Shown: positions 45,987 through 48,770 of the stretch, piece after piece | How the letters are laid out: the number at the start of each line of letters is the position of its first letter | Position numbering within the stretch: position 1 is the first letter of the stretch | Assembly (NCBI GenBank): GCA_017536545.1 | Contig: JAFXHF010000015.1 | Location: forward strand, 62,001 to 126,000 | From: a bacterium | GTDB lineage: Bacteria > Cyanobacteriota > Vampirovibrionia > Gastranaerophilales > Gastranaerophilaceae | Reading direction: 5' to 3' | DNA length: 64,000 nucleotides | Program-made: the position numbers and the translations under genes | Notes under the pieces: generated by a model | Seen by the model: only the letters and a program-made list of their open reading frames with translations | Told to the model about the DNA's origin: nothing | The model's database searches: none

Positions 45987-46508
45987 ATGGCAACAAAAGC
46001 ATTTAAATCAGAAAAAATAGATGCTATTAAATCAAAACTAGAAAAAGCTCAAGTTGCAATTATCACTGAGTACCAAGGTTTGAGCGTTGAAGATATTACA
46101 AAACTTAGACGTGAAATCCAAAAAGGTGGCGGCGACTACATGGTAACTAAAAATACTTTAGTTAAAATCGCTGTTCAAGGTACTGAATATGAAGCATTAG
46201 CTGAAAAAATGACAGGACCTATTGCATTAGCTTTCGGTTTTGAAGATCCAGTTAGCCCTGCAAAAGCAGTAGCAAAATTTATCAAAGACTCTAAAAAAGG
46301 TACTATGATTGGTGCTGTATTAGATGGTAAATTGCTATCTGAAGCTGAAACAAAAGCTTTGGCAGAACTTCCAACAAAAGAAGAACTATTTGCAAAAATG
46401 CTTGGATCTATCAACTCACCAGCATCTGGTATCGTTGGTTGCGTGAACGGTGTTATGTCAGCACTTACAAGAGCAATGGCAGCAGTTCGCGATCAAAAAG
46501 CTGCGTAG
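45987..46508 (+). CDS. rplJ: 50S ribosomal protein L10 (uL10)
   Basis: The 173-residue protein starts MATKAFKSEKIDAIKSKLE and has ITEYQGLSVEDITKLRREIQ in pieces, GGDYMVTKNTLVKIAV and the C-terminal helix that binds L12 dimers. It anchors the L7/L12 stalk on 23S rRNA and recruits elongation factors. AAAGGAG precedes the ATG. It is co-transcribed with rplL 78 bases on. The usual neighbours rplK, rplA and rpoB are not present. Confidence 0.97.
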   Translation: MATKAFKSEKIDAIKSKLEKAQVAIITEYQGLSVEDITKLRREIQKGGGDYMVTKNTLVKIAVQGTEYEALAEKMTGPIALAFGFEDPVSPAKAVAKFIKDSKKGTMIGAVLDGKLLSEAETKALAELPTKEELFAKMLGSINSPASGIVGCVNGVMSALTRAMAAVRDQKAA

Positions 46509-46586: not shown

Positions 46587-46958
46587 ATGAGTGTAGAATC
46601 AATTTTAGAATCAATTGAAAAATTAACATTATTAGAAGCAGCTGAATTAGTAAAAGCTATGGAAGAAAAATTCGGTGTATCTGCAGCAGCTCCAGTAGCA
46701 GTTGCAGCAGCTCCTGCAGCAGCAGCTCCAGCTGAAGATGCTGACGCTGAAGTTTCTGTTATCTTAGCTTCTGTACCAGCTGATAAGAAAATCGCTGTAT
46801 TAAAAGAAGTTAGAACTTTAACAGGTTTAGGCTTAAAAGAAGCTAAAGATCTTGTTGAAGCAGCTCCTAAAGCAGTTAAAGAAAACATTAAAAAAGACGA
46901 AGCTGCAGCTATCAAGAAAACTCTTGAAGAAGCTGGTGCTGTTGTTGAAATCAAATAG
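46587..46958 (+). CDS. rplL: 50S ribosomal protein L7/L12 (bL12)
   Basis: The 123-residue protein has the N-terminal dimerisation domain ([20 protein letters not shown]), an Ala/Pro-rich hinge (about 35-55) and the C-terminal factor-binding domain with [20 protein letters not shown] and VVEIK at the end. It forms the flexible stalk with L10 that stimulates GTPases. AAAGGAG precedes the ATG; a strong terminator follows at 46984. The next gene encodes a membrane protein with a similar C-terminal domain. Confidence 0.97.
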
Positions 46959-46983
46959 TTTGATTAAAATGACAAGTTGCTTA

Positions 46984-47018
46984 AAAGAGGTAATCCATTG
47001 TGATTACCTCTTTTTTTG
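46984..47018 (+). terminator. Rho-independent terminator
   Basis: AAAGAGGTAATC (46984-46995) pairs with GATTACCTCTTT (47002-47013), followed by a T-run, closing the rplJ-rplL operon. Confidence 0.93.
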
Positions 47019-47082
47019 TTTGATTTTTTGAGAAAAATATGCTATATTTATGTCAAGAATTTAGTAAGAAGGAGTACTTTTT

Positions 47083-47454
47083 ATGATAGATATGCCTTTT
47101 TTGTATGCCGCGATTGTTATTATGTTAATCTTAATTGCAAGAGAATTTTTAAAACGTAAGTTTAATTTTGATATGGATAATGTCGATAGTACAAAATTAA
47201 AGGCGTTGTTTGCTTCTAAAAAAGGTTCTATTAAAAAAGCAACTGGTGATAAATCTTTGGTTTTGATTAGTGCTGGTGACAATAAAGCAACTGTAATGGC
47301 AACATTAAGACAAATTACTGGTATTGATTATAATGAAGCAAAAAAACTTGTTGATTCTGCTCCGTCTGTGTTGATGTCAAATATTTCAGAAGCAGAAGCT
47401 GATTTGAATAAAAAAGCTTTGGAATTTGTTGGGGCTAAGTTAGAAATTAAATAA
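47083..47454 (+). CDS. Membrane-anchored protein with L7/L12 C-terminal-like domain
   Basis: AAGGAG precedes the ATG. The 123-residue product has an N-terminal transmembrane helix (FLYAAIVIMLILIAREF, about 6-22), a basic linker (KRKFNFDMDNVDSTKLK), and a C-terminal domain (about 57-123) that aligns with L7/L12 over about 67 positions with one gap, sharing about 28 residues, including TG, NEAKKLVDSAP, NI, EA and the final EIK. The stalk dimerisation domain and hinge are missing. I infer a membrane-tethered paralogue that may bind translation factors near the membrane. It lies just after the rplL terminator. Confidence 0.82.
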   Translation: MIDMPFLYAAIVIMLILIAREFLKRKFNFDMDNVDSTKLKALFASKKGSIKKATGDKSLVLISAGDNKATVMATLRQITGIDYNEAKKLVDSAPSVLMSNISEAEADLNKKALEFVGAKLEIK

Positions 47455-47555: not shown

Positions 47556-48770
47556 TTAAGGTTTAATTATAGATAACACGTATTTGTCGTTGAAGTATTT
47601 TTGAGCACAAGCTAAAACTTGTTCTGCTGTAACTTCTTTTACTAATTCTTTCATTTTTTCTGTGTATTCAAAACCAAAGCCAAGGGCTTCATATTTAGCA
47701 TATGAACATGCTTGTTGAACGTTTGTTTCATCAAGGAATGCACATTTACCGATAAGGTTATTTTTAGCATCGTTAAGTTCCTTTTCTGAAACTGGTATTG
47801 TTCTAATTTTTTCTATTTCTTCGTCAAAACCTTTTAGTGAGACTTCTATATTTTTAGCTTCTGTTGCGATATAAATCATGAAGTTTCCAACAAGTTTATA
47901 AGTTTCGTATGAACTTCTAACAACGTAAGCCAAACCTTTTTTATCACGAAGTTCCATAAATAATCTTGAAGATAATCCACAAGCACCTAGCATAATATTT
48001 AATAAAATCAAAGCTGGATAATCTTCTTCACCATATGTTTGAACTTGCCATCCTTTGATGATGTGTGCTTGGTTTAGGTCAGATTTTATATTAGTAACTT
48101 CTTTTTTCTCAGTCAAAACTGGTTTTTCGATATTAAAGTTGTTATCTGTTGATGCTGGTAATGTACCAAGAGTTTCTTCAATTTGAGGAAGAATATCATT
48201 TTTTTCTAGAGCACCAACAATAGCAAGAGCTTTTTTGCTATTGTTCAATATGTTATCATAAGCCTCAACAACATCTTCTTTAGTAATAGAATCAATATTT
48301 TCTAAAATTGTTGTCATTGAATTGCCATAATAATGGTTTTCAAACATTGCTCTTGCATATGAGTCCATTGCTCGAACACGTGGAGAATCAAGTTCTGCTG
48401 TTACTTCCCCTTGAATTTTGATTTTTTCTTTTTCAAATTCTTCAAATGTAGAATTTGTGATAACTTCGTGCATTAGTTCAATTGCTTTTGAAAAATCTTC
48501 ATTAAGACAAACAAATTTCAATCGTAAGTAATTTGGGAACAAATCGCTTGAAAAGTCGATTGCGTATTTTTCGAATTCGTTTGCAAGTTCTTCTGAGTTA
48601 TAATTTTTTGTACCTTGTAGTAAAAGTCTTGCTACAAGTGAGTATATCCCAGGTTTCTTCTCAGCGTCATTTACTGACAAATTTAGGCAAACTGCCATTC
48701 TTGGGGTGTTGTCGTTCTTTTTATAAATATAACTAATATTATTGTTTAATTTAGAAATTTCTTTTATCAT
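47556..48770 (-). CDS. M16-family peptidase-like protein lacking HxxEH
   Basis: The 404-residue protein has the two-domain M16 layout: LSVNDAEKKPGIYSLVARLLLQGT at residues 30-53 is the region that normally carries HFLEH, and here reads YSLVARL with no metal ligands. Residues about 265-290 have LFMELRDKKGLAYVV, the R/Y pattern found in M16B partner subunits that help bind substrate. It is thus probably the non-catalytic half of a two-subunit M16B peptidase; no catalytic partner is adjacent. GGAGAGAT precedes the ATG. It is divergent from the ComM gene. Confidence 0.87.
   Translation of the reverse strand: MIKEISKLNNNISYIYKKNDNTPRMAVCLNLSVNDAEKKPGIYSLVARLLLQGTKNYNSEELANEFEKYAIDFSSDLFPNYLRLKFVCLNEDFSKAIELMHEVITNSTFEEFEKEKIKIQGEVTAELDSPRVRAMDSYARAMFENHYYGNSMTTILENIDSITKEDVVEAYDNILNNSKKALAIVGALEKNDILPQIEETLGTLPASTDNNFNIEKPVLTEKKEVTNIKSDLNQAHIIKGWQVQTYGEEDYPALILLNIMLGACGLSSRLFMELRDKKGLAYVVRSSYETYKLVGNFMIYIATEAKNIEVSLKGFDEEIEKIRTIPVSEKELNDAKNNLIGKCAFLDETNVQQACSYAKYEALGFGFEYTEKMKELVKEVTAEQVLACAQKYFNDKYVLSIIKP

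What the first reader, a model, noticed from the sequence alone, without database searches (positions are those of the whole stretch)
47083..47454. Membrane-tethered paralogue of the L7/L12 C-terminal domain beside rplL
The product shares about 28 of 67 aligned residues with the factor-binding domain of the adjacent bL12, has a transmembrane helix instead of the stalk dimerisation domain, and sits right after the rplJ-rplL terminator. Only the GTPase-factor-binding domain is kept, so it may recruit translation factors to the membrane or regulate stress translation.
Basis: partly seen in the sequence, partly recalled or inferred. Interest (0 to 1): 0.7.

Follow-up and report, generated by a model that had tools for sequence, protein, structure and literature searches.

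The report
Membrane-anchored copy of ribosomal L12 domain
One genus of gut-type bacteria carries, right next to the ribosomal stalk gene rplL, a separate small gene that fixes a modified copy of the stalk's factor-binding domain to the inner membrane; it is real and conserved, but what it binds there is not known.

Summary
ORF 47083-47454 encodes a 123-aa protein: one N-terminal membrane helix, a short linker, and a complete bL12 C-terminal domain (PF00542, E=2e-16; model 0.8 Å from 1CTF; 29/67 identical to the adjacent bL12), with no dimerisation domain. It sits behind the rplJ-rplL terminator and has its own conserved promoter. It occurs in all 41 genomes of its genus in which the rplL region is assembled, on the same contig as rplL in 38, and in none of the other ~40 sampled genera of the family or its order. 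It is one clade with a long stem, under purifying selection. The CTD is predicted to face the cytoplasm. Helix α4, part of the factor-binding face, is the most conserved stretch, but rewritten: R73 and K84 kept, K65 mostly kept; V66→A, K70→A, G74→Q fixed, I69→M and L80→Y nearly so; K81/E82/D85 variable. It probably binds one fixed partner, not with normal EF-Tu-type bL12 chemistry. Translation-factor recruitment to the membrane is possible but unshown; a changed partner is about as likely. Single-TM L12/ClpS-domain proteins are already described, so this is a new, genus-fixed variant of a known kind.

The parts
45987..46508 (+). rplJ (uL10)
   Evidence: PF00466 E=1.1e-27
46587..46958 (+). rplL (bL12), complete: dimerisation domain plus CTD; parental family of the paralogue
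   Evidence: PF16320 and PF00542, TIGR00855 above its cut-off
46983..47014 (+). intrinsic terminator of rplJ-rplL (13-bp stem plus T tract)
   Evidence: scan found 1, shuffles mean 0.2; a hairpin is visible at this place in most other genomes read
47020..47048 (+). predicted promoter of the paralogue: TTGATT, 17 nt, TGC-TATATT (extended -10)
   Evidence: 9 of 12, TG present; the same TTGATT-17-TGn-hexamer is the best-scoring site in 18 of 30 genomes
47070..47074 (+). Shine-Dalgarno AGGAG
   Evidence: sequence
47083..47454 (+). CDS of the membrane-anchored L12-CTD protein (123 aa, P0001)
47092..47148 (+). single membrane helix (about residues 4-22), very short N-terminus outside, K/R-rich stretch after it inside
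   Evidence: hydropathy in all 30 homologues, 2-5 K/R just after the helix; helix 4-27 in the model
47164..47250 (+). juxtamembrane motif (FDMDN-like) and variable linker (residues 28-56)
   Evidence: alignments; 39% mean identity, omega about 0.57
47251..47451 (+). L12-type C-terminal domain (residues 57-123)
   Evidence: PF00542; Foldseek 1ctf rmsd 0.8, TM 0.96 by target length
47281..47313 (+). helix alpha4 block NKATVMATLRQ (residues 67-77 = E. coli 64-74), most conserved stretch of the domain
   Evidence: lowest mean entropy of 55 windows

Best explanation
A single-pass inner-membrane protein that arose once, in the ancestor of this genus, from a bL12 C-terminal domain and has a membrane helix in place of the stalk dimerisation domain. 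The helix lies N-out/C-in and holds one L12-type CTD on the cytoplasmic side on a flexible linker. The alpha4 face of that CTD docks one fixed cytoplasmic partner and so holds it at the membrane. Shown here: domain, predicted fold, single origin, genus-wide fixation, a conserved promoter-like site of its own, constraint concentrated in alpha4. Inferred: topology (positive-inside rule) and that alpha4 binds a partner. Least certain: the partner. I favour a protein that also uses the bL12 CTD (a translational GTPase such as EF-G, IF2 or a LepA/BipA-type factor), bound with altered specificity because K70 and the alpha5 contacts are lost. The tether would raise that factor's concentration near membrane-bound ribosomes or hold it in reserve there.
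For: Domain and fold. Topology. Genus-wide presence: 41/46 genomes, 34/34 of high quality; the 5 without it gave no hit at all, not even rplL, and are 66-88% complete, and the short match in G183 ends at a contig end. On the same contig as rplL in 38/41. Single origin: clade support 97/95, stem 0.74. Constraint: omega about 0.24 for the CTD, 0.31 for the membrane part. Alpha4 is the most conserved of 55 windows; R73 30/30, K84 29/30, K65 27/30. Own conserved promoter-like site.
Against: K70 is Ala in all 30; V66A, L80Y and the loss of K81/E82 change the canonical factor-binding face, and K70 matters for EF-Tu binding (PMC10602876). No translational GTPase is peculiar to the genus: EF-G-, EF-Tu- and IF2-sized proteins and two of about 600 aa are in genomes with and without the gene. 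No physical or expression data exist. Codon usage does not suggest r-protein-like expression.
Confidence: 0.35

Rival explanations
1. Neofunctionalised adaptor: the same membrane-held CTD, but the rewritten alpha4 face binds a non-translational partner (a membrane or signalling protein, or a protease-adaptor partner in the manner of the structurally similar ClpS).
For: Fixed non-bL12 residues across alpha4 (A66, T67, M69, A70, T71, Q74) and Y80, with drift at the alpha5 contacts. L12/ClpS domains are used outside translation: single-TM proteins beside Skillet-2 lipocones (PMC12419801), insertions in vWA conflict proteins (PMC7159879). In the phylum, an SPFH/Band 7 protein carries two L12 CTDs.
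Against: R73, K84 and mostly K65 of the factor-binding face are retained; lasting neighbourhood with rplL.
Confidence: 0.35
2. Titrating decoy: the tethered CTD competes with the ribosomal stalk for factors and so damps translation.
For: Same fold and partly the same face as bL12; promoter of its own next to rplL.
Against: bL12 is abundant (general knowledge) and the ordinary codon usage of the paralogue (0.62 against 0.87 for rplL) suggests lower expression, so competition by mass action is unlikely; K70 loss should weaken binding.
Confidence: 0.12
3. Anchor for ribosomes rather than factors: the CTD touches uL11 or another stalk-base element and holds translating ribosomes near the translocon.
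For: The bL12 CTD can contact uL11 in some ribosome states (general knowledge; title of 2ZJQ).
Against: No dimerisation domain to bind uL10; no direct evidence.
Confidence: 0.1
4. Decaying duplicate without function.
For: Faster evolution than bL12 (68% mean CTD identity against 93% for bL12).
Against: Open in every genome where it is fully assembled, omega well below 1, conserved promoter-like site and alpha4.
Confidence: 0.02

Closest known systems
bL12 (L7/L12) ribosomal stalk protein, TIGR00855 / PF16320+PF00542
   Same: C-terminal domain: sequence, length and fold; R73, K84 and mostly K65 of the factor face; gene neighbour
   Different: No dimerisation/uL10-binding domain, no Ala-rich hinge, membrane helix instead; K70, V66, L80, K81 changed; under the TIGR00855 cut-off (57.3 of 84.4 bits)
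Single-TM proteins with a cytoplasmic ClpS-ribosomal L7/L12 domain beside Skillet-2 lipocones (PMC12419801)
   Same: One membrane helix plus a cytoplasmic L12/ClpS domain
   Different: Those described carry an HTH fused to the domain and sit beside a lipocone gene; this one has no HTH and sits beside rplL
Phage bL12-domain proteins (PMC6375957)
   Same: bL12 CTD without the rest of bL12, transplanted into a new context
   Different: Phage-borne, not described as membrane-anchored; no relative of this alignment in viral contigs
Second TM-anchored L12-CTD genes in the same genus (L060, L069-L071, L073) and in other members of the phylum (L136, L142, L144)
   Same: Membrane helix plus L12 CTD
   Different: Those of the genus have a CTD closer to bL12 and fall outside the clade of this gene; the others lie elsewhere or carry other domains
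ClpS adaptor
   Same: Similar fold (Foldseek TM about 0.54-0.71 by target length)
   Different: 9-17% identity, much weaker than bL12 CTD

Membership tests
Ribosomal_L12 C-terminal domain (PF00542) | Profile match above the curated cut-off over the whole domain | tested here: met
   60.5 bits vs 25.9, profile 3-67 of 67
Ribosomal_L12 C-terminal domain (PF00542) | beta-alpha-alpha-beta-alpha-beta fold of 1CTF | tested here: met
   Model strands and helices in that order; 1ctf rmsd 0.8, TM 0.96 by target
bL12 ribosomal stalk protein | N-terminal dimerisation / uL10-binding domain | tested here: not met
   PF16320 absent, present in the neighbour rplL
bL12 ribosomal stalk protein | TIGR00855 equivalog cut-off | tested here: not met
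   57.3 bits vs 84.4
bL12 ribosomal stalk protein | Conserved factor-contact residues K65, V66, I69, K70, R73, L80, K81, K84 | tested here: inconclusive
   R73, K84, mostly K65 kept; I69 to Met; V66, K70, L80, K81 lost
bL12 ribosomal stalk protein | Binding of translational GTPases / assembly into 50S | not testable with these tools
   Needs biochemistry
Single-TM ClpS/L12-domain proteins (PMC12419801) | Single TM helix plus cytoplasmic L12/ClpS domain | tested here: met
   cytoplasmic side by positive-inside rule only
Single-TM ClpS/L12-domain proteins (PMC12419801) | HTH fused to the domain | tested here: not met
   Pfam shows no HTH
Single-TM ClpS/L12-domain proteins (PMC12419801) | Skillet-2 lipocone neighbour | not tested
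   Neighbours are rplL and an M16 homologue, and the latter was not found at this place in the other genomes read; no lipocone profile was run
ClpS adaptor | Closest fold and sequence match to ClpS | tested here: not met
   bL12 structures rank first; ClpS at E 0.03 and weaker

The most novel reading that the evidence does not exclude
A dedicated membrane receptor for translational GTPases: this genus evolved a tethered stalk domain that concentrates one elongation, initiation or LepA/BipA-type factor at the membrane to serve ribosomes that insert membrane proteins.
Probability: 0.2. Interest if true: 0.75.

Novelty: new variant of a known kind. Interest (0 to 1): 0.45.

Why it matters
The bL12 CTD is the ribosome's docking arm for translation factors. 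A genus that has fixed a membrane-held, rewritten copy of that arm next to rplL offers a natural experiment in how the docking face can be retargeted, and possibly a way in which translation factors are brought to membranes. It also adds a clean, genus-wide case to scattered reports of L12/ClpS domains used outside the ribosome.

Tried and rejected
Chance similarity: rejected. Mis-annotated or split rplL: rejected, since a complete rplL is adjacent. Read-through expression only: unlikely, since a conserved promoter-like site lies between rplL and the start. A genus-specific translational GTPase as obvious partner: not found. Mobile or viral origin: no related gene in viral contigs; phage and plasmid hits cover at most 71% of the query, mostly just the CTD, and several are annotated as rplL. 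RNA element around the gene: no Rfam match. Descent of the paralogue from the genus's own present bL12: not resolved; the paralogue lacks the one-residue insertion in the beta1-alpha4 loop of that bL12, but the tree on 67 columns cannot place its root. Codon usage as a sign of high expression: no.

Full report
What is there. The ORF at 47083-47454 (+) encodes 123 aa, MIDMPFLYAAIVIMLILIAREFLKRKFNFDMDNVDSTKLKALFASKKGSIKKATGDKSLVLISAGDNKATVMATLRQITGIDYNEAKKLVDSAPSVLMSNISEAEADLNKKALEFVGAKLEIK, with an AGGAG Shine-Dalgarno. Residues 59-123 match PF00542 (Ribosomal_L12 CTD) at E=2e-16 and 60.5 bits; the dimerisation domain PF16320, present in the neighbour rplL, is absent. TIGR00855 gives 57.3 bits against an equivalog cut-off of 84.4, over positions 54-125 only. 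BLASTP with the adjacent bL12: 29/67 identical, E=1e-12. The PDB sequence matches are all bL12 or its mitochondrial form. An AlphaFold2 model from 17 homologues shows a helix 4-27 and then beta-alpha-alpha-beta-alpha-beta with pLDDT about 78-87; Foldseek puts it 0.8 Å from 1CTF with TM 0.96 by target length.

Topology. All 30 homologues read have one N-terminal hydrophobic helix (best 19-mer mean 1.64-2.92), with 0-13 residues before it and, in nearly all, 3-5 K/R within 18 residues after it. By the positive-inside rule (general knowledge) the CTD faces the cytoplasm. This is inferred, not measured.

Distribution. In the window's genus the protein is found in 41 of 46 genomes, 34 of 34 of high quality; the five negatives gave no hit at all, so rplL is missing too, and they are 66-88% complete. 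In 38 of the 41 it lies on the same contig as rplL; in G149 and G148 the two genes lie on different contigs, with the paralogue 77-104 bases from a contig end, which fits a break between them; in G139 a stretch that reads like the end of a transposase gene lies upstream of it and rplL starts another contig. The short match in G183 stops at a contig end. PF00542 searches of 146 genomes of the family and 146 of the order show only one full CTD per genome outside this genus, apart from matches split at contig ends and a weak one (21-24 bits, under the cut-off) in a protein of about 815 aa of genus g33. In the phylum sample of 244 genomes, 5 distant genomes had a second match with the alignment. 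So this is a genus-fixed gene. The genus belongs, I infer, to the Gastranaerophilales: small genomes in a phylum whose other members have cyanobacterial-type bL12 and genomes of 1.6-8 Mb, with RUG-series assemblies among the relatives; no tool named it.

Origin and selection. On a CTD tree the 30 sequences are one clade (97/95) with a stem of 0.74 changes per column; the point of origin is not resolved (67 columns). Median omega by NG86, on pairs many of which are near saturation, is 0.24 for the CTD, 0.31 for the membrane part and 0.57 for the linker; for bL12 it is 0.09. The gene is kept by purifying selection but evolves faster than bL12 (68% against 93% mean identity).

Expression. Between rplL and the gene lies the terminator 46983-47014 and then TTGATT-17-TATATT with TG before the second hexamer (47020-47048), an extended -10 promoter. 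In that one region such scans find six sites where shuffles give 3.5, so the single match means little; but TTGATT, a 17-nt spacer and TG before the -10 hexamer are together the best site in 18 of 30 genomes, and are visible by eye in L054 and L064 too. In one group of genomes the promoter lies before the hairpin, so the hairpin falls in the leader. Where a second L12-CTD gene lies in between (L060, L069-L071, L073) the site is not found directly upstream, as expected if the two are transcribed together. Codon usage is ordinary: 0.62 on a scale where rplL is 0.87, rplJ 0.78 and the other window genes tested 0.50-0.75.

Which face is conserved. Mapped to E. coli numbering, the most conserved of 55 windows of 11 columns is 64-74, helix alpha4 (mean entropy 0.16 bits; whole domain 0.88; alpha5, 79-88, 1.33). 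N64, A66, T67, A70, T71, R73 and Q74 are invariant in 30; K65 is kept in 27, K84 in 29; M69 in 27; Y80 in 29. In the bL12 of the same genomes the corresponding residues are K65, I66, A67, L69, K70, E71, R73, L80, K81, E82, K84, all invariant. So one half of the factor-binding face is under strict constraint but rewritten, and the other half (K81, E82, D85) has drifted. Substitutions of K65 or K70 in bL12 reduce EF-Tu binding (PMC10602876). A fixed partner is therefore likely; a normal bL12-type interaction with EF-Tu is not.

Partner search. The PF00009 proteins of genomes with and without the gene are alike: EF-G (about 700 aa), EF-Tu (about 410), two of about 600 (LepA/BipA-sized), IF2 (about 840) (names given by size, not by profile). 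No genus-specific translational GTPase stands out. In one search the four genus members have 11-13 matches against 7-12 in most others; the excess comes from weak hits and from EF-Tu split over two contigs.

Comparison with what is known. A 2025 paper describes single-TM proteins with a ClpS-ribosomal L7/L12 domain in the cytoplasmic region, fused to HTH and next to Skillet-2 lipocones (PMC12419801). L12/ClpS domains also occur as insertions in vWA conflict proteins (PMC7159879) and in phage proteins (PMC6375957). The kind is thus known; a genus-fixed copy beside rplL with its own promoter and a rewritten alpha4 was not found in the papers searched.

Verdict. Real, very probably functional, new variant of a known kind. 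Anatomy: near certain. Partner: open, with factor recruitment (0.35) and a non-translational adaptor role (0.35) about equal.

Noticed in passing
46587-46958 and L045-L073: The bL12 of this genus has a beta1-alpha4 loop one residue longer (ASVPADKK) than the SAGANK of the other genera of its family that were read; the same VPADKK loop occurs in other members of the phylum.
   Followed up: partly
47556-48770: The M16 peptidase homologue downstream has no HxxEH motif, so it is probably inactive as a zinc protease; no active M16 partner was found in the window.
   Followed up: partly
L144:673-1704: A 343-aa SPFH/Band 7 membrane protein of another member of the phylum carries two L12 C-terminal domains.
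   Followed up: partly
L060, L069-L071, L073: Five genomes have a further membrane-anchored L12-CTD gene between rplL and the paralogue, with a CTD nearer to bL12; the tree does not support a single origin for these.
   Followed up: partly
L147:1345-1719 and L145:984-1964: Other proteins with very diverged L12 CTDs at other loci of the genus (124 aa with a membrane helix; 326 aa with the CTD first and hydrophobic stretches after it).
   Followed up: no
L092-L094: Proteins of about 815 aa in genus g33 with a weak L12-like stretch (21-24 bits, under the cut-off).
   Followed up: no
L048:1208-1500: A repeat-like insert (CAGCGTCATACTGAGCGTTAGCGAAG...) lies between the rplL terminator and the promoter in one genome.
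   Followed up: no
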